Assembly (NCBI GenBank): GCA_021793595.1
Contig: JAJYSL010000118.1
Coordinates: forward strand, 1-12,123
Source of the DNA: Acidobacteriota bacterium
GTDB lineage: Bacteria; Acidobacteriota; Terriglobia; Terriglobales; Acidobacteriaceae
DNA length: 12,123 nucleotides
Reading direction: 5' to 3'
Both the position numbers and the translations under genes were made by a program. Below the pieces are notes generated by a model. That model ran no database searches and was not told the DNA's origin. It worked only from the letters and a program-made list of their open reading frames with translations. This document shows positions 230 through 12,123 of this stretch, one piece after another (position 1 is the first letter of the stretch; each line of letters opens with the position of its first letter).

Positions 230-1504
230 TTACTGACTGAAGCGTCCCGGATAGGCCCAGAGCCCTAACGCCGGATTCGAGATGAAGAAGATTTCTTCGC
301 CGTCAACCATGTTCCAACCATCCGTGAGCTTGGCAGGATCATATTTCGCGGAGTAGTCGCGCAAGTCCCCATAGGCGAAGTGTGCAGATTCGATTTCCTC
401 GCGAGTCAGATGACCGGGACAGTAGCGAATGGTGAACCGCCCTTCGCTGGAGCCGTGGATTAGATGCGCCGCGGCGGAAAGATTGTTGGCCAGCGCCGAG
501 TCATTCTTGACAGCTTCGAGAGTCGCTGGGGTGCCGCAATAGCCGTATTTGCGAATGAGCGCATCGATGGCAGCATCTTCACCAAAGGCATGCACACCCG
601 GAGCTAGGACGATCAGTTCCGCGCCATTGGCCAGCGCCATGCGCGTGCGATAGACGCTTTTGTTGCCAAGCCAGGTGGATTTGAATTCGCGTGGATCCAG
701 GAAGACAACCGCTTTGCGAATCTCCCGATCCATCATAAAGAAATTGACTTTGAGACTGAGCTCGGCCGCGCGTTCAAAACACTCAAAATCGTCGCCGATA
801 AAGAGACCATTCATGACTAGCTTGCCAGCTGCATTCTTGCTGACGACGGTGAGCACATAAACAATCGGCATATCCTGCGCGAAGTGGTCGCTGGCATAGT
901 TGAGAACTCGCCTGACCGGCGTATCCGCGCGGCCCATCATGCGCTCCATGCCATACACCGCGCCCAGAAAGTGGGTGCGGTGTATGCCCAGAACTCCGCC
1001 CGTGCCAACGAAAATGTTTTTGTTAAAGTTGGCCATGCCAATAACCTCATGCGGCACCACCTGACCGATGGACAGGATCAGGTCATGGCCGCCGTCTCTC
1101 AGCAGTCTGTTTACCTGGACGGGCACCGGAAACTGGAGCTTGCCTTCGCTGACTTCGTAGATAAACTCGGGTGGAACTTCTCCCAGAGTGACAACGTCGT
1201 TGCGCCAGTCGTGCACGCGAAATAAATTGTGGGGCACGGGTCCGAACATGGTCTGCATCTCATATTCGGTCATTGGATTGTGCGTGCCCAGCGCCGGCAG
1301 CACATCCGTGAGTGCTTCGCCGTAATAATTCCACGCGTGCTCCGTAAGCATGCCGCTCATGGAGTGCATGCGCGTAAAGTCTGGGGGCACGGCCAGGACT
1401 TTCTTGCGAGGGCCAAGTTTCTCGAGCGCGAGAAACAAGCTCGCCTTCACCTCGGCGGGTGACAATTCGGTAGTTGGCGATCCGGCAGCGAAGAAGAGAC
1501 TCAT
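230..1504 (-). CDS. LarA-like nickel-pincer racemase/epimerase family protein
   Basis: This 424-residue protein belongs to the lactate racemase LarA superfamily (DUF2088), whose characterised members racemise or epimerise 2-hydroxy acids with a nickel-pincer nucleotide. The family landmarks are in order: DFTR at 42-45 (the family D-x-T-R motif), GTHNPMT at 73-79 (first catalytic-type His, H75), PHE at 151-153 (second His, H152), a lysine at K162 in the position that tethers the cofactor, and H175/H178 after it. The usual Gly-Phe-Ser-Gly-Gly stretch before the lysine is replaced by GMANFN, so the substrate is probably not lactate; a sugar acid is plausible but inferred. There is no signal peptide, so it should be cytoplasmic. 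It is the last gene of a four-gene minus-strand set, 56 nt after the RraA-like gene. The ATG at 1504 has only a distant SD-like AGGA. Maturation genes larB/C/E are not in the window. Confidence 0.8.
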   Translation of the reverse strand: MSLFFAAGSPTTELSPAEVKASLFLALEKLGPRKKVLAVPPDFTRMHSMSGMLTEHAWNYYGEALTDVLPALGTHNPMTEYEMQTMFGPVPHNLFRVHDWRNDVVTLGEVPPEFIYEVSEGKLQFPVPVQVNRLLRDGGHDLILSIGQVVPHEVIGMANFNKNIFVGTGGVLGIHRTHFLGAVYGMERMMGRADTPVRRVLNYASDHFAQDMPIVYVLTVVSKNAAGKLVMNGLFIGDDFECFERAAELSLKVNFFMMDREIRKAVVFLDPREFKSTWLGNKSVYRTRMALANGAELIVLAPGVHAFGEDAAIDALIRKYGYCGTPATLEAVKNDSALANNLSAAAHLIHGSSEGRFTIRYCPGHLTREEIESAHFAYGDLRDYSAKYDPAKLTDGWNMVDGEEIFFISNPALGLWAYPGRFSQ

Positions 1505-1560
1505 CAGTTTCTATGGTATTCCTGCTCGGCTAGCTGGAGAAGCCACGCGATGACGAGCGA

Positions 1561-2535
1561 TTATTGCGACGGTGATGCAACCCGAGAAGAATTGCTTCGC
1601 GCAGAGGAGCGCTGCTTCCCTTTCGCGACCATTGCATCAAATTCGCTGCGCGGCATCTTCAGCATGTTCGGGTGAACATCGATCCATTTTGCGAAGGCGT
1701 CATATTTCTCCGGAGTCCACCCTCCCTCAAATTGCGCGCCGTTCTTGCCTTCGCGATTCAGTTCGAAATTGAATGCGTCTTGCAGCGATGTAAATTCAGC
1801 GGAACTGATGGCAGCTTCAGCCAGGATTGCGGGGATAAAGATGACCCCCTCCGGTTTCGCCAAAACCAGGTCACCCGGTAAGACCACGGCTCGACCAATT
1901 CGGATCGGAGCATTGATCGACGTCAGCTCCATTTGGCCCCACGCTGACGGATCATAGCCACGATAGAGACCGTTGAAGTTAGGAATCGCCCGGTTTTCCT
2001 CCTGATCGCGAATCCCGGCGTTAAACACAAAACCCGTGTGACTACGGGCGGCAATTCCATTGCCAAGGTTCGACCCGATGAGGGTGCCGTCGATGATCTT
2101 CCCAAATCCATCGGCCACGTATACATCGCCTGGCTGCAATTCCTCAATAGGCCACGAATTGGTGTCGCCCACGCGGTGCTCCTGCTTGCCCTCGGCGGCG
2201 ATCGCTGCGGCCATATCCGGACGTAAAGGTATGTACTGCGCGGTCAGCGCTCTACCGGCAAAAGATTGCTTAGGGTGAAGGGCCTGCCAACCTCCCTCAA
2301 ACTGATTGTCATAACCATGAGCACGCAGAAAATCCCAGATGTCTTCAATCGTCATATTGACGGCCCGTTTCAGCAGATCATCGGGCAATTTCGGACGTCC
2401 ATCCGGGAATCGCTCGCCCTTCCAACCCGACGTATAGAACAGAATCTGCCGCCGCGTCATTTTCACTTGGCCGAAAACCGGCGATGTCCCCAATACCATG
2501 CATGTCAGCACGGCGGCCCAGATCATCTTCCTCAC
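1561..2535 (-). CDS. Exported RraA-like (HMG/CHA aldolase-type) protein
   Basis: This 324-residue protein carries the RraA/HMG-aldolase fold motifs. PGDVYVADG at 135-143 is followed by the conserved Gly/Leu-rich helix GTLIGSNL (150-157), then GIRD at 174-177 with the Arg-Asp pair that binds metal and substrate and an acidic residue three positions on (E180), and PGDLVLA at 220-226. Family members are metal-dependent aldolases or oxaloacetate-type decarboxylases; RNase E regulation applies only to a subgroup. The N-terminus is a clear Sec signal (MRK, a hydrophobic stretch from about 5 to 16, likely cleavage near residue 22 after VFG), which is unusual for this normally cytoplasmic family. The motif QFEGGW occurs twice (78-83 and 268-273), flanking the core, and the tail is Ser/Arg-rich. 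I chose the GTG at 2535 because AAAGGAG lies 5 nt upstream; the ATG at 2526 would be too far. It sits between a SelA-like and a LarA-like gene. Confidence 0.82.
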   Translation of the reverse strand: MRKMIWAAVLTCMVLGTSPVFGQVKMTRRQILFYTSGWKGERFPDGRPKLPDDLLKRAVNMTIEDIWDFLRAHGYDNQFEGGWQALHPKQSFAGRALTAQYIPLRPDMAAAIAAEGKQEHRVGDTNSWPIEELQPGDVYVADGFGKIIDGTLIGSNLGNGIAARSHTGFVFNAGIRDQEENRAIPNFNGLYRGYDPSAWGQMELTSINAPIRIGRAVVLPGDLVLAKPEGVIFIPAILAEAAISSAEFTSLQDAFNFELNREGKNGAQFEGGWTPEKYDAFAKWIDVHPNMLKMPRSEFDAMVAKGKQRSSARSNSSRVASPSQ

Positions 2536-2624
2536 GCGATTCTCCTTTTAGCGCACATTCGGCCAGAGAAACTGAGCCGTCTCATCGCACTCGATTCTTG
2601 TCCCTCTTTTGCGCCGCTTTACCT

Positions 2625-3911
2625 TCAAGAAGTTCGAGTTCCCGCGGCATTCATCAGAATCTGCTTCAGCCGCTTGGCGACGATCACATCCTGACCCGAC
2701 TGCAGCATCCACACGCCAACCACAATTGTGTTTGCGTCAGATGGCAATCCAGCCTCCGGGGAACCTGTAGCCGGATGCAACTCGATACTCGGCGATCCAT
2801 GACGGCACATTTCAGCTACTTCCAGCGGAGCGATCTTCACTTTCTGCTGATCGTACCGCAATAAAAGAGTAGGAACGTGATTCGCCACTTCAGGAACATA
2901 GATCTGTGAAGTCAGCGTAGGTACGCTAGAAAGGTAGTCGGCGATTCTCTGCGCGCGCCCACGGAACTCCCTTTCCATCTCTTCGTCCGTCTGGCTCAGG
3001 AGCCAGTCGATGGCGGCCACCATGCCGACAATTTGTTCCTTAGCCACCTTCTGTCCACGACCCACCACGTTATCAATTGGATTATTATTCCGCGCTGCGG
3101 CTGCGATCAGCTCTTTCTTGCCGAGTAATAGACCCGTATTCTGCGGACCTCGAATGCCCTTACCACCGGAAAAACAAACTAGATCAAATCCCATTTGGGT
3201 ATATTTCCAAAGGTTCGATATCGGGGGCATATCCGCAGCAGCATCGTTCATGCTAGGGACGTTATGTTCATGAGAAACTCGGATCCAATCCTCCCGACCG
3301 ATCGTTCCACTTGTAGCCGCGTTGAAGAAATGTGTCATGACCGTTCTTGGGGTGAAAGCTGCGCGATATTCATCGAGGGTTTCTACCTCGACAATGCGAA
3401 CGCCACAGCTCAATAATGCGTGGTCATATCCGTAGCGGTGCCCCTTCTGCATGATGACTTCGTTCTTCAATGAATCCATCCCTTGCGGGATAAGGGGCGG
3501 GATGTGCCGGCCGCTTTGATCATTCGCCACCGTCACACATGCGGCGGTTCCAAGCGTCAGCGCGGACGCTGCACCGGCAGACACTAAGGCCGATTCACAG
3601 TGCAACCGTTTCGCCAGGTAGGATCCGGCGGCTAGCTGCAACTGTTCCAGCCGCACAGGATGTTTCGCCGCTCTGGCAACTGCCAGCTGGACACTCTCCG
3701 GCATGACGGCTGCCGTGAGAAAGGTATAGGTGCCGGCGGCATTGATGATCTCCTCCACTCCAAGTTTCGCGTAGTAGTCGACGCCATCGTTTTCATGGGG
3801 TGAAAGCTCCGCCCCAAACAAGCGCATCGGTGTCAAGGTTGAGACTCCAATGGAGGCTAACGCGGTGCGAACGTGAGCAAAGAAGGACCTGCGCGAATAG
3901 CAAGTCGTCAT
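2625..3911 (-). CDS. Tat-tagged SelA/DgaE-like PLP enzyme, paralog 2
   Basis: This 428-residue aminotransferase-fold PLP enzyme belongs to the SelA-like group that includes D-glucosaminate-6-phosphate ammonia-lyase (DgaE). The internal-aldimine lysine is K251 in FSGGKGIRGPQ; D223 in the NDAAAD stretch is the expected pyridine-nitrogen ligand. The bacterial SelA signature would read FSGDKLLGGPQ, and the tRNA-binding N-terminal domain is missing, so selenocysteine synthase is unlikely and a beta-elimination of an amino or hydroxy sugar acid is more likely (inference). The first residues contain SRRSFF (6-11) followed by a hydrophobic run, a twin-arginine signal, with mature protein probably starting near residue 35. 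Tat export would suit an enzyme folded around PLP. It follows its paralog after 133 nt and precedes the RraA-like gene by 89 nt. The ATG at 3911 has AGAGGA a few nt upstream. Confidence 0.8.
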   Translation of the reverse strand: MTTCYSRRSFFAHVRTALASIGVSTLTPMRLFGAELSPHENDGVDYYAKLGVEEIINAAGTYTFLTAAVMPESVQLAVARAAKHPVRLEQLQLAAGSYLAKRLHCESALVSAGAASALTLGTAACVTVANDQSGRHIPPLIPQGMDSLKNEVIMQKGHRYGYDHALLSCGVRIVEVETLDEYRAAFTPRTVMTHFFNAATSGTIGREDWIRVSHEHNVPSMNDAAADMPPISNLWKYTQMGFDLVCFSGGKGIRGPQNTGLLLGKKELIAAAARNNNPIDNVVGRGQKVAKEQIVGMVAAIDWLLSQTDEEMEREFRGRAQRIADYLSSVPTLTSQIYVPEVANHVPTLLLRYDQQKVKIAPLEVAEMCRHGSPSIELHPATGSPEAGLPSDANTIVVGVWMLQSGQDVIVAKRLKQILMNAAGTRTS

Positions 3912-4044
3912 ATGTTCCTCTCTAATGCTTGCTTACCGCTGACACGATCTAGTTAGTTCCCGTCCTACTGCACCGACTGAATAGTTATTGCGGAAGTTGG
4001 CAATGCGTGATTCCTCCGATATGTCTAAGTTCCATTCGCCGCGG

Positions 4045-5310
4045 TCAGACCTGGTGCTCTCGCAAGACCTTCGACAGGGCATCGGCAATTATTCGATCCT
4101 GTCCGGGCTGCAGCACGATCGCAGTAATTCCAATGGCGCTGTTCTCGTGATTTCCGCCTCCACCTAGAACAATGGATGGCTTCATGCTCGCAAGTTCTCG
4201 ATTCACCTGACGTGCGTCAATGGAAAACTTGCTGGGATCTAGGTGGATCTGGATAGTTGGAAAATTATTCGCGATCTCCGGAACGTGTCGAGTCACCGTA
4301 ACTCCCGCGAGTTTAGTGACCCTGTTCGCAATTGTATCCAGCTGCCTCCATTGCTCTTTTGCAAGGGCTTGCTCATCTTCAGCCAAATAAAGCTCCAACG
4401 TCTTCAGCATGCCAACAATTTCTTCTTTACCAACTTTAGTTGGACGGCCCAGCGTATCCTCGTTGGGGCTCATATTCAGAAGTGCATTGCCGATCATTTC
4501 CTGGCGACCAATGAGCAGACCCGTACACTGCGGACCGCGCATTGCTTTGCCGCCGCTGAATGAGATCAGATCGTACCCCATATTTGCGTAATCCCAGAGA
4601 TGCGATTTTGGCGGAGTGTCCGCTGCCGCGTCAATAAACGCGGGAAGATTCGCCGCATGAGCCAACTTCAACCATTCTTCCCTCTTGATCTGTCCATCTG
4701 GATCCGCCAAATTTAAAAAATGCATGGCAGCGGTCCGCTCACTGATGGCGTTGTGCACATCGGCTACCGTCTCTACCTCAACCATCTTGACTCCGGTAGC
4801 ACGAATCTGATGATTCCAGGGACTGCGATGCGCTTTCTGAATAATGACCTCTGACTTGAGTCCCGTGAGGTCCGGAATCTGTTTGATATAGGTCTCATTG
4901 CTTCCGGTCAGAATTCCAGAGTAGCCATTTTGAATGGCGGATGCAGCTCCGGAAGTGACGAGTGCGCTATAGCCTTGCGGCAGCTTGAGCATTTCGGCAA
5001 TACGTTTCCCTGCCGCGGCTTCCAGATCATTAATATTGACGAAGTGCAAAGAGGCGAGCTTCATGACGGCTTCCGCCTCCGGCCGCATCAACGATCCCCC
5101 AAGGTAGGTCATGGTCCCTTGGCCGTTGATCACCGTGGTTAATCCCAGCTCTTCGTATACATTCCCACTCTCGCCCAAGCCCTTGATCTTTCCACTCCAC
5201 GAAGCACCCCTGTTTGGAGCAGAAGCGGCCATGGCCTTGCGGCCAATCATTGACGCTGACAGCACTGCAATCGCGCGTAAAAAAGCCCGACGATTGATCT
5301 TGTTTCGCAT
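4045..5310 (-). CDS. Tat-tagged SelA/DgaE-like PLP enzyme, paralog 1
   Basis: This 421-residue paralog of the next gene downstream is the first gene of the left operon. The N-terminus carries NRRAFLR (6-12) followed by a short hydrophobic run and AMAAS (26-30), a twin-arginine signal with a likely Ala-x-Ala cleavage near residue 28. The PLP lysine is K255 in FSGGKAMRGPQ, and D227 in IDAAAD is the cofactor-pairing Asp. Blocks shared with the paralog include the T/VSAGAAS-type segment (119-124), EVIIQKAHR (154-162) and DLISFSGGK (247-255), so the pair arose by duplication. The reaction is probably ammonia or water elimination on a sugar-acid substrate, as in DgaE, but the substrate is unknown. 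GGAAA lies about 5 nt before the ATG. A candidate promoter and a palindromic operator sit 60-110 nt upstream. Confidence 0.8.
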   Translation of the reverse strand: MRNKINRRAFLRAIAVLSASMIGRKAMAASAPNRGASWSGKIKGLGESGNVYEELGLTTVINGQGTMTYLGGSLMRPEAEAVMKLASLHFVNINDLEAAAGKRIAEMLKLPQGYSALVTSGAASAIQNGYSGILTGSNETYIKQIPDLTGLKSEVIIQKAHRSPWNHQIRATGVKMVEVETVADVHNAISERTAAMHFLNLADPDGQIKREEWLKLAHAANLPAFIDAAADTPPKSHLWDYANMGYDLISFSGGKAMRGPQCTGLLIGRQEMIGNALLNMSPNEDTLGRPTKVGKEEIVGMLKTLELYLAEDEQALAKEQWRQLDTIANRVTKLAGVTVTRHVPEIANNFPTIQIHLDPSKFSIDARQVNRELASMKPSIVLGGGGNHENSAIGITAIVLQPGQDRIIADALSKVLREHQV

Positions 5311-5720: not shown

Positions 5721-5759
5721 ACGCAAAAACGGCCTCCGAGTGGAAATTGGAAGCCGTTT
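5721..5759 (-). terminator. Rho-independent terminator after dsrE2
   Basis: On the minus strand AAACGGC (5759 to 5753) pairs with GCCGTTT (5733 to 5727), and three more base pairs (TCC with GGA) follow inside after one mismatch, leaving an 11-nt loop. The transcript then continues with a T run (5729 to 5725) and a second T run (5721 and beyond). It lies 68 nt after the dsrE2 stop codon and points the right way to end the tusA-dsrE2 operon. On the plus strand no T run follows the stem, so it is one-directional. Confidence 0.7.
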
Positions 5760-5826: not shown

Positions 5827-6387
5827 TTATAGGAAGAACGCCTGTTTCGATTCACTGATCATTTGAATAAAGCTGCCGGCTCCAACAAAATCGAGGTGCG
5901 GATAGTCGATCATCTCCTCCGGCTTGAAACCCATCAGATCCATCGACATTTCGCAGATGTGGATTTGGATGCCATACTCTCCGGCCTCCTGCATCAGTTG
6001 CTCCAGGGACTTGACTCCGTGCTGCTTCATGATCGAACGGATCATCTTTGGGCCAATGCCGCCCATCTGCATCTTCGAGAGGGGGAGCGCCCCGGAGCCG
6101 CGCGGCAGCATCCAGCCAAACATCTTTTCCATAAATTTCTTCGGAGGCGCCTTTTTTGGATCGCGCAACGCAGCCACGGCCCAGAAGGTAAAGAACATGT
6201 CCACCTTGATGTCATAGGCGGTCGCTGCTAAGGCAATAATAAAGGCCGCTATGGTGGTGTCGAGATTTCCCGTCATCACCCCGATGGAGAGGTGGTCGTT
6301 GCCCGCTGATTGTTCTATCGCATCCACGCGGGCGGTGAGTGTATCCAGCGCATTCTTGAAATCGACTTCTGTAAGTGTGTCAGGCAT
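5827..6387 (-). CDS. dsrE2: DsrE2-type sulfur-carrier protein (DsrE/DsrF family)
   Basis: This 186-residue DsrE/DsrF-like protein is of the DsrE2 type. It has a hydrophobic segment after TGNLD leading to DMFFTFWAV (63-71), the PLSKM(Q/N)M block (102-108), and IHICEMSMD (142-150) with a single cysteine C145. In DsrE2 proteins the corresponding C-x-M-S-M-D cysteine is thought to carry sulfane sulfur and exchange it with TusA; tusA opens this operon. The hydrophobic N-terminal half suggests membrane contact. I chose the ATG at 6387 rather than the in-frame ATG at 6420: AAAGGA (6402 to 6397) is 9 nt before the former, whereas the latter has no SD and would overlap qmoC. It is the last gene, 25 nt after qmoC, and a terminator follows. 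Confidence 0.85.
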   Translation of the reverse strand: MPDTLTEVDFKNALDTLTARVDAIEQSAGNDHLSIGVMTGNLDTTIAAFIIALAATAYDIKVDMFFTFWAVAALRDPKKAPPKKFMEKMFGWMLPRGSGALPLSKMQMGGIGPKMIRSIMKQHGVKSLEQLMQEAGEYGIQIHICEMSMDLMGFKPEEMIDYPHLDFVGAGSFIQMISESKQAFFL

Positions 6388-6396
6388 GATTGGCTT

Positions 6397-6402
6397 TCCT
6401 TT
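6397..6402 (-). promoter_or_regulatory. Ribosome binding site deciding the dsrE2 start
   Basis: AAAGGA on the minus strand is 9 nt upstream of the ATG at 6387 and lies between the qmoC stop and that ATG. No comparable site precedes the in-frame ATG at 6420, so translation most likely starts at 6387. Confidence 0.7.
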
Positions 6403-6412
6403 GCGTACGGCG

Positions 6413-7624
6413 TTAGGCATTGCTGACGGCAGCCGTGGTTTTTTGTGGAGCCGGCGCCAGGGCCCACTCGTGGAGGGCCAGGGCCAGCGTCCGGTAGAGG
6501 ACGTGCGCGAATTTTGTCAGGGGCAGCATGATCAGGATGTCCATTGCCAGAATGATGTGGGTGAGGAAGATTGTGTATCCGAACAAGGTCGGATGCGGCA
6601 TGTAAACGACGATCTCGGTCAGCAGTCCGGTAAGGACGGTGGCCGCAAGAAGCAACAGGAAGAACCAGTCGGAGAAGGAACTCTTATCGTACGGGGATTC
6701 TTTCGCGCTGATCCTGCGCGAGATGGCAATGGTTAAGCCGTAGAGGCAGGCCAGGCCGCCCAGGAGTCCGAGGAGACGCATCGGATACCAAGGTGGCACA
6801 GGTGAGCCGATTGGCTTGAAGAGAAAATCAAGTGTGGTGGCAATCAGCATCGCGAGAAAGCCCCACATGATGGTGCCGTGGACGAACCAGGCGCGCCGAT
6901 AGACGGGCTCATGGGTGGGTTCCGTTGTCTGTTCGCAATTGCGGAAGCGGCGATGATTGAGAGCGTCCGTCACAGCCAGCCAGAGGGAGGGAAGGAGCGC
7001 CGCGAGCGGAAATGCCGGCCGCTCACCGGTGTGATTCTTTTTTCTCATCACCCTGTAGATCATGGAGAAAACGCCAAAGGCCAGGCTGACGCCGATCACA
7101 GCAAACAGCGCAACGCCGATGCTGTGGACCCACTCGCCGGGTATGAACTGGAAGAGCCGGGAGGAGCCGATGCCGCTGAAGATTGCGCCGTTGCCGCCCA
7201 TTTCCAACCCGCCTTTGTGCGACAGCAGCAAGAGGGCGAAGAACGCGGAGAACAACAGGAAAACCAGGATGTTGACGGCTGCGGAGCGATACATCCAGCC
7301 GGCCAGCCCGGTCGCATCATAACGGGAGATGGCGTAACTGCGAGCCGCTGCCATAAATTGCATCGGGTCTGCTTCGCGCGGACAGGTCTCGGTGCATTCG
7401 CCGCAGGCATAGCAGCGCCAGATATCTTCATCGGCCAACAGTTCCTTTTCCATGCCCACTTGCGCCATGCGAATGACGCGGCGCGGAAAGCCGGACGAAT
7501 CCTCTGCCAGCGGGCAGACGGCAGTACAGTTTCCGCAGTTGAAGCAGGCGCTCACATCCAGCGTGCCGCCCGGGCCATGCTTCTTGATCTTGTCCATCAA
7601 TGCAACATCGATTGGGTGTGCCAT
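6413..7624 (-). CDS. qmoC: QmoC-like protein: HdrC ferredoxin fused to a haem-b membrane anchor
   Basis: This 403-residue protein has a soluble HdrC-type part with two 4Fe-4S sites (C27, C30, C33, C37 and C71, C74, C77, C81). An integral membrane domain follows, with about six helices near 117-135, 167-189, 246-266, 283-301, 318-339 and 349-370. Histidines in or beside the helices (H167, H249, H356, H374) are candidate haem-b ligands, as in the NarI/HdrE-type part of QmoC. In sulfate reducers QmoC passes electrons between the QmoAB flavoproteins and menaquinone; the same role at the membrane is likely here. The frame is open 36 codons further upstream, but that would overlap the preceding gene. 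GAGGG lies 6 nt before the ATG at 7624, and the earlier ATG at 7630 abuts it. The gene starts 22 nt after the winged-helix gene. Confidence 0.87.
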   Translation of the reverse strand: MAHPIDVALMDKIKKHGPGGTLDVSACFNCGNCTAVCPLAEDSSGFPRRVIRMAQVGMEKELLADEDIWRCYACGECTETCPREADPMQFMAAARSYAISRYDATGLAGWMYRSAAVNILVFLLFSAFFALLLLSHKGGLEMGGNGAIFSGIGSSRLFQFIPGEWVHSIGVALFAVIGVSLAFGVFSMIYRVMRKKNHTGERPAFPLAALLPSLWLAVTDALNHRRFRNCEQTTEPTHEPVYRRAWFVHGTIMWGFLAMLIATTLDFLFKPIGSPVPPWYPMRLLGLLGGLACLYGLTIAISRRISAKESPYDKSSFSDWFFLLLLAATVLTGLLTEIVVYMPHPTLFGYTIFLTHIILAMDILIMLPLTKFAHVLYRTLALALHEWALAPAPQKTTAAVSNA

Positions 7625-7630
7625 TGCCAT

Positions 7631-7635
7631 CCCTC
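7631..7635 (-). promoter_or_regulatory. Ribosome binding site deciding the qmoC start
   Basis: GAGGG on the minus strand is exactly 6 nt from the ATG at 7624 and directly touches the ATG at 7630. The second, downstream ATG is therefore the usable one and gives an N-terminus starting MAHPIDV. Confidence 0.65.
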
Positions 7636-7646
7636 GCACTCTGTTT

Positions 7647-7961
7647 CTAGTGACTCGTTGTGGTCTCTTCCCTGACGACGAGCGCATACAAGAGGTACTC
7701 GCCCGCTTCGCCGGCTTCGGCGACCTGTCCATATTTGCGCATCCCCGTCAGGTGCCACAGGGCTTCGTCGCTTGGCATGTTCAATGCCGCGGCGATCTCG
7801 GGAACCGTGGCCGGTTTCTCCGTCAGCATCTGAATGATCGCCTTACGCGCGGCTTTCAACTGCTTCGCGTGCTGTTTCTTTTGCTCGCTGATACCGCCCA
7901 TGCGCTCGCGCATAGTGGCGAGAGCCTTTTTCTGCTGAGCCGTGAGTGTCTTCATTGCCAT
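7647..7961 (-). CDS. Small winged-helix-like protein inside the Qmo/Hdr operon
   Basis: This 104-residue protein begins with a basic, Gln/Lys-rich helix (1-40). A winged-helix-like fold follows: a helix KAIIQMLTEKP (40-50), a helix-turn-helix around ATVPEIAAALNMP (51-63), a recognition-type helix SDEALWHLTGMRKYG (64-78), and a short wing ending GEYLLYAL (87-94). There are no cysteines and no metal-site motif. It could be a DNA-binding regulator of the operon, or a structural or assembly partner that reuses the fold. Its position, 28 nt after the long hdrA and 22 nt before qmoC, argues for co-translation with the complex. AAGGGAG lies 9 nt before the ATG at 7961, supporting this start. I do not recognise a named family. 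Confidence 0.8.
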   Translation of the reverse strand: MAMKTLTAQQKKALATMRERMGGISEQKKQHAKQLKAARKAIIQMLTEKPATVPEIAAALNMPSDEALWHLTGMRKYGQVAEAGEAGEYLLYALVVREETTTSH

Positions 7962-7989
7962 TGTCGATTTCTCCCTTCAGCTGCACGGG

Positions 7990-10008
7990 TCAACCCAGGT
8001 GCACCAGTTCTTCTACACCGCATTGTGGGTGAAGAGCGTCGGCGACCAGGCCGTCCACCATCGCATCGTACTGATCCAGGCGCCAGCCATCGACATCGAT
8101 GGCGCGACTGGGGCATACCGGGACGCAGGCACCACAACCGGAACAAAGCCCCGCATTCACCTCGGCGCGTTGCACCTTGCGTCCGTCGACCTCAACTTCG
8201 ACCATCTTCAGCGCGCCTTCGTAGTCGCATTGCGTGACGCAGATCGCGTTGCCGGTGCAGCGCGACGCATCGACGACCGCCACAAAGGGATTCAGCTCCA
8301 CTACATCCTTGGCAAACATTGAGGCCGCCTTGACTGCTGCGGCACTCGCGGCATTCAGCGTCTCCTGAATATTCATCGGACCCTGCGCCGTGCCCGCAAG
8401 CAGTACGCCGTTGACAGCCACCTCAACCGGGCGCAGTTTGGGGTGAACCTCCTGTAGAAAGTGGTCTTCACCGGTCGGAAGCTTGATGCTCTCAACCAGG
8501 TCTTCGATGTGACTGGGCATCATGCCCACACCAAGCACCACCATGTCCACGGGGACTTCCAGTTCCTCGCCCCAGGTGAGAGCGTCCTTGACAGTGACCG
8601 TCAGGGGAGCAGCCTTTTTGCCGCCAGCGTGCCCACTGCGCTCCACCTTGACCGGGTCCTCGCCATTGAAGCGGAAGAAGACGACTCCGGCCTTGGAGGC
8701 ATTGATGTAGTAATCCTCTTCTCCGCGCCCGTAGGTGCGGATGTCACGATGAAAGTCGTAGACACGGATTTTCGGGAAGCGCTCACGGACAGCGAGTGCC
8801 TGCTGCAGAATGGTGCTGCAACAAACGCGCGAGCAGTAGGTGTTCAAGGTGCCGTCGGGTTGCGGTTCGTGGACTCCATCCAGTTGCCGACTGCCGACGC
8901 AGTGCAGGAATGCAAGGCTGCGAATGGTACGTCCCTGGTAGACCATGTCCTTAGCGCCGGGGTCGAGGCTCTGGGAAAACCGGATGAACTCCGGCGTCGT
9001 CAGCACGCAGGGATCCTCATGATAGAGGAACTCGCCGTCGCGCGGAACATACGGACGGAAGCCGGTTGCCATGACGATGGCGCCGACCAGTGCGTCGGTC
9101 GACGCAGTGGCGCCTGCGGGCCCGAAAGGTCCCGTGATCACCGTGCGGAAATTTCCGATAAAGCCGTTCACTTCCGTGACGTTGCTGTTCAGCAGGACTT
9201 CGATATTCTTGTTGGCCTGCACCTTTTGGATCAGCTCGGTTACAAATTCGCTGGCCAACCTTTCGGATGGATAGACGCGTCCATGTTCATTCAGTCGGCC
9301 GCCGAGACGATCGGACTTTTCGACGAGCATCACCAGAATGCCGCGGCCTGCCATGTCCACGGCCGCCTTCATCCCGCCGATGCCACCGCCAATCACCAAA
9401 GCCTTGCGATGGTTGGGGAGCTTGATCTGGTCGAGTGGAATGGAATAGCGCAGTTTGCCGACAGCGGCAGTAATCATCTGGATGGCGAGTTGCGTGGCTC
9501 CTTCGGGATCGTGCCGATGCGCCCATGAACCCTGTTCGCGAATGTTCACCTGCTCGTAGAGATAGGGGTTCAGGTTGGCGCGGGAGACCGCACCGCGGAA
9601 GGTCTGCTCATGCAGAGACGGCGAGCAGGAGGCCACCACGACGCGGTCGAGATTTTGCTCGATGATGTCGGCGGTGATGGTTTGCTGGCCTGGGTCGGAA
9701 CAGCAAAAGGTGTTTACCTTGGCCGTGACGACTCCTGGAATCAGGCTGACGACTTCGGCTACCCGCTCGACATCGACGACATCGGAGATGTTGCCGCCGC
9801 AGCGGCATATATAGACTCCGACTCTTACCTCCGGCGGCAGATCGGAGCGTTGCTGCTGGGCCCTCTCCAGTTGCTGCTTCACGGCAGAGTGTTGCTTCAT
9901 ATAGGTTGCGTCCGATTCGAGCAGCGCCTCGTCCTCTTCCAGAGTTCCGCATACCAGATCGAGGTCTTGTGTGCTCGGCTGTTGGATGAAACCATTTTTG
10001 TCGCTCAT
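7990..10008 (-). CDS. hdrA: Long HdrA-like flavoprotein, QmoB position
   Basis: This 672-residue protein has a charged, Gln-rich extension (1-60), then the HdrA N-terminal iron-sulfur domain (C68/C70 in YICRCGGNI, C102/C103, C128 in ASCSP). A Rossmann FAD domain follows (GGGIGG, 207-212), with the HdrA-type cluster cysteines C370 and C392, C396, C397 (YCSRVCC). At the C-terminus is a two-cluster ferredoxin: C584, N587, C590, C594 and C622, C625, C628, C632. The second ferredoxin site is complete; the first has Asn where a Cys is expected. The ferredoxin insert normally found within the flavin domain of HdrA is missing, and there is no fused MvhD domain as in QmoB of sulfate reducers. It probably relays electrons between the partner HdrA, MvhD and QmoC; flavin-based bifurcation is possible but unproven. 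AGGA lies 8 nt before the ATG, and the gene starts 38 nt after qmoA. Confidence 0.85.
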   Translation of the reverse strand: MSDKNGFIQQPSTQDLDLVCGTLEEDEALLESDATYMKQHSAVKQQLERAQQQRSDLPPEVRVGVYICRCGGNISDVVDVERVAEVVSLIPGVVTAKVNTFCCSDPGQQTITADIIEQNLDRVVVASCSPSLHEQTFRGAVSRANLNPYLYEQVNIREQGSWAHRHDPEGATQLAIQMITAAVGKLRYSIPLDQIKLPNHRKALVIGGGIGGMKAAVDMAGRGILVMLVEKSDRLGGRLNEHGRVYPSERLASEFVTELIQKVQANKNIEVLLNSNVTEVNGFIGNFRTVITGPFGPAGATASTDALVGAIVMATGFRPYVPRDGEFLYHEDPCVLTTPEFIRFSQSLDPGAKDMVYQGRTIRSLAFLHCVGSRQLDGVHEPQPDGTLNTYCSRVCCSTILQQALAVRERFPKIRVYDFHRDIRTYGRGEEDYYINASKAGVVFFRFNGEDPVKVERSGHAGGKKAAPLTVTVKDALTWGEELEVPVDMVVLGVGMMPSHIEDLVESIKLPTGEDHFLQEVHPKLRPVEVAVNGVLLAGTAQGPMNIQETLNAASAAAVKAASMFAKDVVELNPFVAVVDASRCTGNAICVTQCDYEGALKMVEVEVDGRKVQRAEVNAGLCSGCGACVPVCPSRAIDVDGWRLDQYDAMVDGLVADALHPQCGVEELVHLG

Positions 10009-10046
10009 ACATTTTTCCTCGAGGTTCTATTTCTGTCCCTTGTTCC

Positions 10047-11390
10047 TTATCCAACCAGAACCGCTTCTTGCGTCTGATCCATGGCGATGAACCGCTTCTG
10101 ATAGAGATATTGGCTGACCTGCATCGCAGCAGCGCCTGCCTCCGCGATGGTGTCCACGATGTCCTTGGGGCCGGCTGCGACCCCGGCGACAAATATGCCC
10201 GGCGCTGTCGTGAGGGTTGGCGAAGTCAGCATCGGCGTGGCGACAAAGCCGTCCGCCGCCCGACGCACGGGTGTGGTCCCGGACATATCCCACTCCGGCA
10301 GCATTCCCTGCGCAAGGACTACCAGGTCGTGCCGACGTTCTTGCAGAAAGTTCGCTGGGTCCTCCGTCGTCTCCACGTGCAGCACCAGATCGCCATCGTC
10401 CACTGGATCGATGCGCGCCACCTTGCCGCGCACGAAGTTGATACCCATCGCTTTGGCGTTCTGATAGAACTGCTCATAGCCTTTGCCAAAGGCGCGAATA
10501 TCCATGTAGTAGATGGTGATGTCCGCGATGGGCAGGGCGCCGGAGAGCAACATAGCCTGCTTGATGGCGTACATGCAGCAGACGCGCGAACAATACGACA
10601 CTCCGATCGAAGCATCGCGGGAACCTGCGCATTGAACGAAGGCGACGGAAGAGGGGATTTTCCCGTCGGAGGGGCGAAGCACGCGCCCATACGGACCGTG
10701 CGGCGCCAGCAGCCGTTCCATCGTCAGCCCAGACACAATATTCTTGCTGCGCATCGCGTTGTACTGCGGCTTCACGTTCAGCGAGTTGAGAGCAAAGCCG
10801 GATGCAACCACGACGGCGTCGGTCTCGACGATCACGGTCTCGGGCTGCTGGTCGAACTCGATGGCGTCGGTCGGACAGACGCGGGCACAGGTTCCGCAGG
10901 TCGCGCACAGTTCCGGATCGAGCACGGCTTTTTGCGGGATTGCATTGGTGAAGGCCACACCGATGGCGCGCTTCGCACCCAGGCCTTCTTCCAGCGGATC
11001 CGGATACTCGGCATCGCAGGCGTACTCGCAGAGGCGGCAGCCGATGCACTTGTCGAAGTTGACGTAGGTTGCCTTCTTCAGCAACTTCACATGGTGCACG
11101 CCATCGATGGTCTGGATTCCCTGCACCTCGGTGTTTACGAGAATCTTGATGTTGTCATGGTGTGAGGACGCGGACATCTTCGGCGCCGTGATGCAACTGG
11201 CGCAGTCCAGCGTGGGAAAGACCTTGGCCAGCGCAATCATGTGTCCGCCAATACTGGGGCCGCGCTCAACCAGCATCACCTTCAGCCCCTGATCGGCCAG
11301 ATCGAGGGCCGACTGCATGCCTGCGATGCCTCCTCCAACCACCAGGGCGTCAGGACGATACGCTTTGCTTTGTTCCATGGCCGGTGTCAT
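10047..11390 (-). CDS. qmoA: Short HdrA-like flavoprotein (QmoA-like)
   Basis: This 447-residue protein begins directly with the FAD-binding Rossmann motif VVGGGIAG (17-24). It has LDCASC (61-66) after the flavin motif and an inserted ferredoxin with two full 4Fe-4S sites (C115, C118, C121, C125 and C162, C165, C168, C172). The HdrA cluster cysteines C254, C267, C271, C272 have exactly the 13/4/1 spacing described for the flavin-proximal cluster of methanogen HdrA. The N-terminal HdrA domain and the C-terminal ferredoxin are absent, as in QmoA. It should be the FAD subunit that meets the redox partner. Its ATG overlaps the mvhD stop (ATGA), indicating translational coupling, and AAAGGG sits 8 nt upstream. 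No substrate-specific motif reveals whether the partner is APS reductase, TusA-bound sulfur or another thiol. Confidence 0.87.
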   Translation of the reverse strand: MTPAMEQSKAYRPDALVVGGGIAGMQSALDLADQGLKVMLVERGPSIGGHMIALAKVFPTLDCASCITAPKMSASSHHDNIKILVNTEVQGIQTIDGVHHVKLLKKATYVNFDKCIGCRLCEYACDAEYPDPLEEGLGAKRAIGVAFTNAIPQKAVLDPELCATCGTCARVCPTDAIEFDQQPETVIVETDAVVVASGFALNSLNVKPQYNAMRSKNIVSGLTMERLLAPHGPYGRVLRPSDGKIPSSVAFVQCAGSRDASIGVSYCSRVCCMYAIKQAMLLSGALPIADITIYYMDIRAFGKGYEQFYQNAKAMGINFVRGKVARIDPVDDGDLVLHVETTEDPANFLQERRHDLVVLAQGMLPEWDMSGTTPVRRAADGFVATPMLTSPTLTTAPGIFVAGVAAGPKDIVDTIAEAGAAAMQVSQYLYQKRFIAMDQTQEAVLVG

Positions 11391-11893
11391 AGCGAGACCC
11401 TTTCTGAAGTCAAGTTTCCGCCCAGCAGCGCGGGATTCACCGTGGAGTGCAGGCGCTGCAACGACTCGTGGTAGAGCTTCTCAGCCAGCGAGCAGTTAAC
11501 GGGCCCCAGGCGGACCAAGTTCTCGGTCATCTCCGCGATCTCCTTCAGGAACGCCTTGATGCATACCGTGCAAATCGCCGTTAGTCGGATCCGCTCAATC
11601 TCCAACCCACCGTTCTTCATATTGGTTGTCAGTTGATCGATCCGCGCCGCCAGACGTTCGTATGCCCCGTGATAAGGACAGTCCGAACCGCAAGCGGCGA
11701 TGATGATGCCGTCAACTCCCTTGCTGTAGGTCCGTAAATAAAAGTCTTCTGGAAACAGCACCGGGGAGAGCACCCGCAAAATGTATACGCTGGAGGGATA
11801 TTCCAAATGAGCCTTGCCTACCGCGTCTGCGCCAGGATAGGCACACTTTTCAGTGGCCAGCACAAGTATCTTAGGAACGAAAACATCGGCCAT
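11387..11893 (-). CDS. mvhD: Stand-alone, divergent MvhD-like iron-sulfur protein
   Basis: This 168-residue protein is a relative of MvhD/FlpD, the small 2Fe-2S protein that docks electron donors onto HdrA. Family landmarks are KCAYPGADAVG (16-26, C17), the hydrophobic strand VYILRVL (36-42), GVDGIIIAACGSDCPYH (59-75, C68 and C72) and a C-terminal helical part. Compared with the usual C-x-W-C at the start and R-V-M-C in the second strand, only one N-terminal Cys remains and S43 stands near the second position. New cysteines appear as ICTVC (C108, C111) and at C134. In sulfate reducers this domain is fused to QmoB; here it is a separate gene just upstream of qmoA, overlapping its start. GAGG lies 6 nt before the ATG at 11893. 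Confidence 0.82.
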   Translation of the reverse strand: MADVFVPKILVLATEKCAYPGADAVGKAHLEYPSSVYILRVLSPVLFPEDFYLRTYSKGVDGIIIAACGSDCPYHGAYERLAARIDQLTTNMKNGGLEIERIRLTAICTVCIKAFLKEIAEMTENLVRLGPVNCSLAEKLYHESLQRLHSTVNPALLGGNLTSERVSL

Positions 11894-11912
11894 ACCACAC
11901 CTCTTACCCGAC

Positions 11913-11930
11913 CGCGGCCATCATGCCGCG
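11913..11930. repeat. GC-rich inverted repeat between tusA and mvhD
   Basis: CGCGGC and GCCGCG form a perfect 6-bp stem around a 6-nt loop, 20 nt before the mvhD start codon and just upstream of its ribosome binding site. No T run follows on the minus strand, so it is not a canonical terminator. It could be a leader hairpin, an mRNA processing or stability element that sets the ratio of TusA to the complex, or chance in GC-rich DNA. Confidence 0.3.
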
Positions 11931-12005
11931 ATCTTGAACTTTGATCTGCAACTGCGGGGACCGCTTGGATGAAACGGATCCATGCCACGATCCCCCCCTG
12001 TGTGG

Positions 12006-12123
12006 TTACTTCTTTCTCATAACGAAGAGACGGTCATGGCCATCCGCTTCGATTAGTCCCAGGAATTCGTGCCCGACCTTTGTTGCCCAGGTGGATAGAT
12101 CCTTGCGAGAGCCTTTGTCGTTG
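12006..12123 (-). CDS. tusA: TusA-family sulfur carrier, C-terminal end (partial)
   Basis: The last 38 residues of a minus-strand gene run off the right edge. They match the end of TusA: the DKGSRKDLSTWATKVGHEF stretch corresponds to the family pattern D-x-G-S-x-x-D-(I/L)-x-x-W-A-x-x-x-G-H-x-(L/F), followed by a central strand, GHDRLFVMRKK and TAA. TusA carries sulfane sulfur on the Cys of an N-terminal C-P-x-P motif, which lies outside the window. The gene is co-directional with mvhD and separated from it by 112 nt, longer than the other gaps in the operon, but no clear terminator intervenes. Its presence ties this Qmo/Hdr set to sulfur transfer. Confidence 0.8.
   Translation of the reverse strand, partial: NDKGSRKDLSTWATKVGHEFLGLIEADGHDRLFVMRKK

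What the first reader, a model, noticed from the sequence alone, without database searches (positions are those of the whole stretch)
5827..12123. Qmo/Hdr-type membrane complex encoded together with TusA and DsrE2 sulfur carriers
Seen: the order tusA, mvhD, short hdrA/qmoA, long hdrA, winged-helix gene, qmoC, dsrE2, all on one strand with tight spacing from mvhD onward and one terminator at the end. Known: QmoABC usually neighbours aprBA (APS reductase) in sulfate reducers, and TusA/DsrE-type carriers usually neighbour the sHdr set (HdrA, HdrB, HdrC, lipoate-binding protein) in sulfur oxidisers. Here the carriers flank a Qmo-like set, with no HdrB and no AprAB in the window. Inference: a quinone-linked complex that oxidises or reduces sulfane sulfur delivered by TusA and DsrE2, a hybrid between Qmo and sHdr.
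Basis: partly seen in the sequence, partly recalled or inferred. Interest (0 to 1): 0.82.

Follow-up and report, generated by a model that had tools for sequence, protein, structure and literature searches.

The report
TusA-linked Qmo-like sulfur redox complex
A gene set from what appears to be an acidobacterium encodes a membrane electron-transfer complex that, wherever its neighbours could be read, sits beside the sulfur-carrier protein TusA in very different bacteria and archaea, and it carries a pair of cysteines that its well-known relatives lack, which suggests an uncharacterised way of moving electrons to or from protein-bound sulfur.

Summary
Window 5827-12122 (minus strand) carries tusA (last 38 codons only), mvhD-like, short hdrA, long hdrA, winged-helix, qmoC-like and dsrE2-like genes, then a terminator. 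It is not a one-off hybrid. Of 80 related loci from many bacterial phyla and from Asgard and Archaeoglobales archaea, 66 have enough upstream sequence: TusA, MvhD, both HdrA proteins and QmoC recur in 66 of 66, the winged-helix gene in 65. An mvhD-first survey added 54 loci, all with tusA within 1.8 kb. Canonical QmoABC in the same genomes is a different set: MvhD fused to QmoB, no tusA, no winged helix. Of 50 carrier genomes, 32 lack aprA and dsrA above cut-off. The MvhD carries a CxxC (68/68) not seen in ordinary MvhD, at a predicted helix start. The exit module varies: QmoC, or HdrC plus a CCG protein. Best reading: a persulfide/thiol oxidoreductase acting on TusA/DsrE-bound sulfane sulfur at MvhD, passing electrons through HdrA flavins to quinone. 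Direction and product are unresolved; nothing is tested biochemically. Closest described kind: 'type II Qmo', whose role its authors leave open (PMC10504309). New variant of a known kind.

The parts
12006..12122 (-). tusA, last 38 codons (truncated by window end)
   Evidence: TusA profile 54 bits; near-identical to the C-terminus of TusA in L001/L002. The CPxP cysteine lies outside the window; it is present in 66 of 66 TusAs of related loci
11387..11893 (-). mvhD-like subunit, 168 aa, with C108-x-x-C111
10047..11390 (-). short HdrA (QmoA-like), 447 aa, FAD-type domain plus inserted 2x[4Fe-4S] ferredoxin domain
7990..10008 (-). long HdrA (QmoB-like without MvhD), 672 aa, N-terminal HdrA cluster domain, FAD-type domain, C-terminal ferredoxin
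7647..7961 (-). winged-helix protein, 104 aa, conserved member of the set
   Evidence: fused to long HdrA in 8 of 8 Bacteroidota loci of the first set; ArsR/SmtB-like fold
6413..7630 (-). QmoC-like membrane subunit, 405 aa: HdrC-type 2x[4Fe-4S] domain plus about 6 hydrophobic helices with conserved His
5827..6420 (-). DsrE2-like sulfurtransferase, 197 aa, one invariant Cys
   Evidence: PF13686; single Cys 48/48; below NCBIfam DsrE2 cut-off
5725..5759 (-). predicted intrinsic terminator (11-pair stem ending in a run of five T)
   Evidence: fold; sequence

Best explanation
The operon encodes a cytoplasm-facing, membrane-attached Hdr/Qmo-like complex (MvhD-like + short HdrA + long HdrA + winged-helix subunit + QmoC) whose reaction partner is sulfane sulfur carried by TusA and a DsrE-type protein. 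Proposed steps: (1) TusA and the DsrE-like protein carry a persulfide (known chemistry of these families, recalled; here inferred from the conserved CPxP cysteine and single DsrE cysteine). (2) TusA docks on the MvhD-like subunit, whose CxxC at a helix start does thiol-persulfide exchange and is the two-electron site joining or splitting the S-S bond (inferred). (3) Electrons pass through the flavin and [4Fe-4S] centres of the two HdrA proteins to the HdrC-type domain and haem-b membrane part of QmoC and so to the quinone pool (inferred from homology). For the window's form I favour the oxidative direction (thiol plus sulfide to carrier persulfide, quinone reduced), which should be downhill (redox values recalled); the reverse would need a second low-potential donor, which variants with a built-in NAD(P)H (GltD) module could supply. 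Shown: gene set, order, breadth, CxxC, separation of the HdrA proteins from canonical Qmo, swappable exit module. Not shown: substrate, direction, complex formation.
For: TusA, MvhD, short HdrA, long HdrA, QmoC in 66 of 66 loci with at least 4.7 kb upstream, winged helix 65, DsrE-like 48 of 50 with enough flank. Independent MvhD-first surveys: 17 of 17 new acidobacterial-phylum loci and 37 of 37 loci from four other phyla have tusA near a CxxC MvhD; of three MvhD hits of about 83 bits taken as controls none has the CxxC. CxxC 68/68; the three solved MvhD sequences aligned (two nearly identical), and L143, L134, L145, lack it. TusA CPxP 66/66. Constant core with two exits, QmoC or HdrC + CCG protein, places the TusA chemistry in the MvhD-HdrA core. 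Winged helix fused to long HdrA in 8 Bacteroidota loci argues for a structural part. GltD/NAD(P)H-type module inserted in short HdrA in Bacteroidota and others.
Against: No biochemistry exists. The invariant CxxC could ligate a cluster with neighbouring cysteines (45/68, 45/68 and 58/68 conserved). The profile used for the surveys was built from CxxC MvhDs, so CxxC among its hits is partly circular (tusA adjacency is not). The winged helix has an ArsR-repressor-like fold and is a separate gene in all 46 later loci that show it, so it may be a regulator. One control MvhD locus (L189) has a weak TusA hit 2.5 kb away. TusA has many roles beyond energy metabolism (recalled). The Hdr active site (HdrB) is missing from the QmoC form, so nothing here is shown to make sulfite. 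QmoC of a few cluster members groups with apr-linked QmoC.
Confidence: 0.5

Rival explanations
1. It is simply a Qmo that feeds AprAB in sulfate reduction or sulfite oxidation; the tusA link is incidental.
For: Homology to QmoABC; 11 of 50 carrier genomes have aprA, including the closest relative G001; type II Qmo is assigned to sulfate reducers V. moutnovskia and A. degensii (PMC10504309, passages read). QmoC of four acidobacterial or planctomycete apr-linked sets groups with a few cluster members rather than with type I QmoC.
Against: 39 of 50 carrier genomes have no aprA above cut-off; six of the genomes that do have it (G001, G014, G017, G018, G019, G048) show a second, complete qmoABC beside aprA with MvhD fused to QmoB and no tusA; tusA adjacency held in every locus where it could be seen.
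Confidence: 0.1
2. It is a variant of the sHdr sulfur-oxidising system that oxidises carrier-bound sulfane sulfur to sulfite.
For: TusA and DsrE carriers beside an Hdr-like complex; a form with HdrC and a CCG protein exists.
Against: No CCG pattern in the window nor in 67 of the 80 loci searched; no GCV_H/lipoate-binding gene within about 15 kb of the cluster's QmoC in the 50 genomes searched (searches compared); HdrA proteins nearer methanogen HdrA than 6tjr.
Confidence: 0.12
3. It works reductively: quinol, or NAD(P)H plus quinol by flavin-based confurcation, reduces persulfide or disulfide on TusA/DsrE/DsrC to sulfide (sulfur respiration or persulfide detoxification).
For: Carriers include lineages thought to be anaerobic (Desulfobacterota, Asgard; recalled); GltD insert; five Bacteroidota loci add DsrC, a DsrK/TmcB-like and HmcE-like protein and a cysteine-desulfurase-family gene, and the genomes G033, G036, G038, G044 had no dsrA match; a CoA-disulfide reductase-rhodanese gene follows dsrE2 in L002-L008.
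Against: Menaquinol alone is a weak donor for persulfide (recalled); the window's form has no GltD insert.
Confidence: 0.2
4. It supplies sulfur or electrons for biosynthesis (tRNA thiolation, cofactor or Fe-S assembly) rather than energy metabolism.
For: TusA serves such roles in many bacteria (recalled).
Against: Membrane quinone-type subunit and patchy distribution (20/297, 8/201, 2/198, 18/198, 13/148 genomes by phylum, centre genomes included) do not suit a housekeeping role.
Confidence: 0.08

Closest known systems
Type II Qmo (PMC10504309)
   Different: The passages of that paper I saw do not tie it to TusA, DsrE, the MvhD CxxC or the winged helix (its two TusA mentions are a figure legend and a reference); its named examples could not be fetched here, so identity is likely but untested
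Canonical QmoABC (type I)
   Same: Two HdrA-type flavoproteins plus a haem/[4Fe-4S] QmoC; MvhD domain present
   Different: MvhD is fused to QmoB, no winged helix, no tusA, mostly beside aprBA; no CxxC in the two rows long enough to tell (L143, L134)
sHdr sulfur-oxidising complex
   Same: Served by TusA/DsrE carriers; HdrA-type flavoprotein; cytoplasmic (recalled)
   Different: Here no HdrB, no lipoate-binding protein, a different HdrA type, and a membrane quinone-type subunit
Methanogen HdrABC-MvhD
   Different: HdrA duties split over two proteins; no HdrB in the window's form; MvhD carries CxxC and keeps only part of the usual cysteines
YTD cluster of sulfur disproportionators (PMC12998232, passages read)
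   Same: TusA and DsrE-type protein together
   Different: An Hdr/Qmo complex in place of YedE and the conserved hypothetical proteins; YedE itself was not searched for
DsrEFH type II sets (PMC13293266, passages read)
   Same: That paper notes that in archaea these DsrE-family genes appear with QmoAB genes, which may touch on the same loci
   Different: No mention of MvhD in its text (0 occurrences)

Membership tests
Canonical QmoABC (type I) | Subunits group with canonical QmoA/QmoB/QmoC | tested here: not met
   Short HdrA: 64 cluster rows on one side (SH-aLRT 95*), 9 canonical rows on the other (100*; 8 beside aprA, L141 not); long HdrA 74 vs 9 (51; canonical 100*); QmoC 78 of 80 rows in one branch (88, not starred), 7 type-I rows apart (100*), but four apr-linked QmoCs outside type I
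Canonical QmoABC (type I) | MvhD domain fused to QmoB | tested here: not met
   Separate gene in the window; fused in the canonical sets of the same genomes
Canonical QmoABC (type I) | Adjacent to aprBA | tested here: not met
   No apr in the window, whose upstream end is cut; in G001 aprA and canonical qmoABC lie on contig C6, the tusA cluster on C130
Canonical QmoABC (type I) | QmoC over NCBIfam NF038018 cut-off 300 | tested here: not met
   215 bits
Type II Qmo (PMC10504309) | QmoA/B nearer HdrA than bacterial QmoAB | tested here: met
   374/386 bits to solved HdrA against 178-239/141-183 bits to nine complete canonical QmoA and nine QmoB; fragments in L139, L138 and L144 scored lower and are left out (phmmer in both)
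Type II Qmo (PMC10504309) | Groups with V. moutnovskia and A. degensii proteins | not testable with these tools
   No named sequences of these were fetched
sHdr | HdrB with CCG domains in the set | tested here: not met
   No CCG pattern in the window; 13 of 81 sequences had a pattern match anywhere, five of them a DsrK/TmcB-like gene in Bacteroidota. A CCG gene does occur in the exchanged-exit form
sHdr | Lipoate-binding protein gene in the set | tested here: not met
   GCV_H searched in 50 genomes; by contig and position none lies in a tusA cluster, the nearest about 17 kb from its QmoC
sHdr | sHdr-type HdrA | tested here: not met
   6tjr (identity recalled) scores 113 and 97 bits against 374 and 386 for methanogen HdrA
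DsrE2 (NCBIfam NF047629) | Score over cut-off 210; two membrane helices | tested here: not met
   54.4 bits; no hydrophobic segment at 1.6 or more; the two helices as a DsrE2 trait are from PMC12998232
TusA | PF01206 fold with CPxP | tested here: inconclusive
   CPxP part lies outside the window; L006 TusA passes PF01206 and CPxP is in 66 of 66 relatives
MvhD/FlpD | PF02662 domain and MvhD fold | tested here: met

The most novel reading that the evidence does not exclude
A separate, ancient class of Hdr-type enzyme, a TusA-dependent persulfide oxidoreductase whose active site is a CxxC in a repurposed MvhD subunit, shared by Bacteria and Archaea, with interchangeable electron exits (quinone through QmoC, disulfide through HdrC plus a CCG protein, NAD(P)H through an inserted GltD module) and possibly flavin-based bifurcation.
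Probability: 0.4. Interest if true: 0.88.

Novelty: new variant of a known kind. Interest (0 to 1): 0.72.

Why it matters
How cells join electron transfer to protein-bound sulfane sulfur without DsrAB or HdrB is open. This set's MvhD turns up in 1-9% of sampled genomes in five phyla (centre genomes included), and 32 of 50 carrier genomes lack aprA and dsrA above cut-off, so it could explain sulfur metabolism in many uncultured lineages now scored as having none. It also gives a concrete residue-level test (the MvhD CxxC) and a job for the unexplained 'type II Qmo' proteins. A practical point: annotating these as QmoABC could wrongly predict sulfate reduction.

Tried and rejected
Whole-genome search of the window's own genome: none held, so whether this organism has apr/dsr is unknown. 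Rfam and tRNA scans gave no hits and the promoter/terminator scan nothing useful. Chance co-location was rejected by the survey loci. 'Hybrid of Qmo and sHdr' was rejected on HdrA type and on the missing HdrB and lipoate-binding genes. A selenium role (SelA-like neighbours, weak YedF hits of TusA) was dropped: the SelA-like genes match DgaE-family models best and were not among the recurring neighbours. A sulfane-sulfur-sensing regulator was considered: an ArsR gene lies within 1.3 kb upstream of tusA in 35 of 58 loci, but its two cysteines are each in only 23 of 41 aligned proteins, so no claim. Loss of one ferredoxin cysteine in long HdrA (N in the window) was considered as an open substrate site; 22 of 73 relatives keep it, so rejected as general. 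Searches for the winged helix found no sequence match in the PDB better than E 0.35 and only weak ArsR/SmtB-like fold matches (best E 5e-4, TM 0.51).

Literature: no description of this gene set was met in the listings (0 papers), nor in the passages seen of eleven papers; these were searches of the main text for a few terms, not whole readings. Subscription papers (for example the V. moutnovskia paper) and supplements were not readable.
Full report
What is in the window. On the minus strand from 12122 to 5827 lie the end of tusA, an mvhD-like gene, a short hdrA, a long hdrA, a winged-helix gene, a qmoC-like gene and a dsrE2-like gene, with gaps of -8 to +38 bases from mvhD on, then a terminator at 5759-5725. 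The genes further down (230-5310) look like an unrelated sugar-acid set: two SelA/DgaE-like PLP proteins, an RraA-like protein and a nickel-dependent putative hexonate epimerase. Among the best protein hits, those that bear an organism name are Acidobacteriaceae or other Acidobacteriota metagenome proteins; the organism is inferred, not given.

Is the order real? One scan of genome contigs with a QmoC alignment (A1: the window's protein and 28 of the 120 hits listed) found 264 encoding stretches, of which the best 80 were kept. Profiles were built from the recurring families and run on all loci. Of the 80 loci, 66 have at least 4.7 kb before QmoC: all 66 hold TusA, MvhD, short HdrA (plain or with insert), long HdrA and QmoC; 65 the winged helix; 64 follow the exact order (L037 has an extra weak HdrA hit, L045 no winged-helix hit). 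Of 50 loci with enough sequence on both sides, 48 hold a DsrE-like gene on the same strand; L035 and L072 do not. The 14 shorter loci were not counted; of these only L074 (Archaeoglobales) reaches tusA, and it shows the full order. Titles place the 80 loci in Acidobacteriota, Planctomycetota, Chloroflexota, Actinomycetota, Myxococcota, Desulfobacterota, Bacteroidota, Verrucomicrobiota, Fibrobacterota, Armatimonadota, Heimdall- and Hodarchaeota, Archaeoglobales and a few others. These loci were chosen by likeness to the window's QmoC.

An independent check started from MvhD. Alignment A2 (45 MvhDs) was searched in 297 genomes of the phylum of G006 (an Acidobacteria record): 20 genomes have a hit of 121 bits or more, the next best hit is 84. 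Seventeen of the 20 were new and were fetched with three hits of about 83 bits as controls: 17 of 17 have tusA (in four with an ArsR-like hit between) and a short HdrA beside a CxxC MvhD; 0 of 3 controls have the CxxC, and one control has a weak TusA hit (42 bits) 2.5 kb away. Other phyla: 8 of 201, 2 of 198, 18 of 198 and 13 of 148 genomes at E 1e-28 or better (the tallies include centre genomes and a few already known). Of the loci found, 37 were fetched: 37 of 37 have tusA on the same strand within 1.8 kb, the CxxC and the short HdrA; 32 the winged helix (in the other five the stretch ends before its place); 17 a QmoC over 200 bits. The profile was made from CxxC proteins, so the CxxC count there is partly circular; tusA adjacency is not.

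Not the canonical Qmo. Six of 50 carrier genomes hold a QmoC over the NCBIfam cut-off. Nineteen regions were fetched. Complete QmoA-QmoB-QmoC trios with MvhD at the end of QmoB lie in L131-L136 (beside aprA) and L141 (no aprA hit on that contig); L138, L139 and L143 show parts of such a set; L137, L140 and L142 show QmoC without QmoAB; L144 has a QmoB-like piece and a CCG-type gene. None of these has a TusA or winged-helix hit. The other regions are further tusA clusters (L146-L149) and an Hdr/Qmo-like set without tusA (L145). aprA is over cut-off in 11 of 50 carrier genomes and dsrA in 17 of 50; 32 of 50 have neither, with the caveat that these are metagenome genomes of unknown completeness (genomes of 50 of the 80 loci). 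In G001, the closest relative, aprA, canonical qmoABC and dsrA share contig C6 while the tusA cluster is on C130.

Trees (quick method, with long-branch warnings): short HdrA 64 cluster rows against 9 canonical rows, supports 95* and 100*; long HdrA 74 against 9, supports 51 and 100*. QmoC is less clean: 78 of 80 rows form one branch (88), but L074 and L078, and the cluster QmoC of L147, group with four apr-linked QmoCs (L131, L134-L136; 99*), apart from seven type I rows (100*). Rows with a GltD insert were left out of the short HdrA tree. All 80 loci were labelled tusA-linked in the QmoC tree (79 of them plus the window passed the length filter), though 13 are too short to see tusA.

Nearer HdrA than Qmo. 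By phmmer the window's short and long HdrA score 374 and 386 bits against solved methanogen HdrA, 178-239 and 141-183 bits against nine canonical QmoA and nine QmoB (fragments left out), and 113 and 97 bits against 6tjr, the sHdr-type HdrA (identity of 6tjr recalled). The short HdrA keeps the HdrA motif LDCxxC where canonical QmoA has LCPPxC. [quoted passage not shown]

The winged helix. Its model (pLDDT 88) weakly matches ArsR/SmtB repressors. Yet it sits between structural genes throughout, and in all 8 Bacteroidota loci of the first set it is fused to the end of the long HdrA, which points to a structural or docking role. It is a separate gene in all 46 later loci that show it, one Bacteroidota-phylum locus (L207) among them, so a regulator is not excluded.

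Modular exits. In L179 and L186 QmoC is replaced by a short HdrC-like protein plus a CCG-type protein, while TusA, MvhD, both HdrA proteins and the winged helix stay; in L179 Pfam confirms both. Profile hits suggest the same or a like exchange in 10 of 17 Desulfobacterota loci (L191, L193, L195, L199-L204, L206), 2 of 6 Chloroflexota loci (L209, L223) and perhaps L217 and L218; those were not checked with Pfam. In Bacteroidota and many others the short HdrA holds an inserted GltD-like NAD(P)H module. So the constant part is TusA-MvhD-HdrA-HdrA-winged helix, and the sulfur chemistry most likely lies there.

Verdict. The gene set is real and widespread; its tie to TusA is the strongest fact. That it moves electrons between carrier-bound sulfane sulfur and quinone is the best reading at about even odds; direction and product are open. 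No description of the set was met in the searched library.

Noticed in passing
window 230-5310: Downstream sugar-acid gene set: nickel-dependent putative hexonate epimerase (NF052594, 646 bits over cut-off 500), RraA-like protein, two SelA/DgaE-like PLP proteins.
   Followed up: no
L046, L052, L056, L062, L070 (upstream part of each locus): Bacteroidota loci place DsrC, an HmcE/DsrM-like and a DsrK/TmcB-like protein and a cysteine-desulfurase-family gene before DsrE2-TusA-MvhD; the genomes of L046, L052, L056 and L070 had no dsrA match.
   Followed up: partly
L179:6973-8253, L186; by profile hits also L191, L193, L195, L199-L204, L206, L209, L223: QmoC replaced by an HdrC-like protein and/or a CCG-domain protein with the winged helix kept.
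   Followed up: partly
L131, L134, L135, L136: These apr-linked sets have canonical QmoA/QmoB but a QmoC that lies outside the type I QmoC branch.
   Followed up: no
L002-L004, L006, L008, L010, L015, L016, L019, L059 and most of L190-L201: A sigma-54-activator-like gene (family f10, named by eye from its sequence) lies near the cluster in both Acidobacteriota and Desulfobacterota.
   Followed up: no
L002-L008: A CoA-disulfide-reductase plus rhodanese gene follows dsrE2, and a FadL/TodX-type outer-membrane gene lies upstream where the contig reaches.
   Followed up: no
P0018 (protein): A QmoC-like protein with a divergent N-terminal Fe-S part joined to a window-like membrane part.
   Followed up: no
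L145 (G044): An Hdr/Qmo-like set with an ordinary MvhD, two HdrA proteins and a QmoC-like protein but no tusA, in a genome that also holds the tusA cluster.
   Followed up: no
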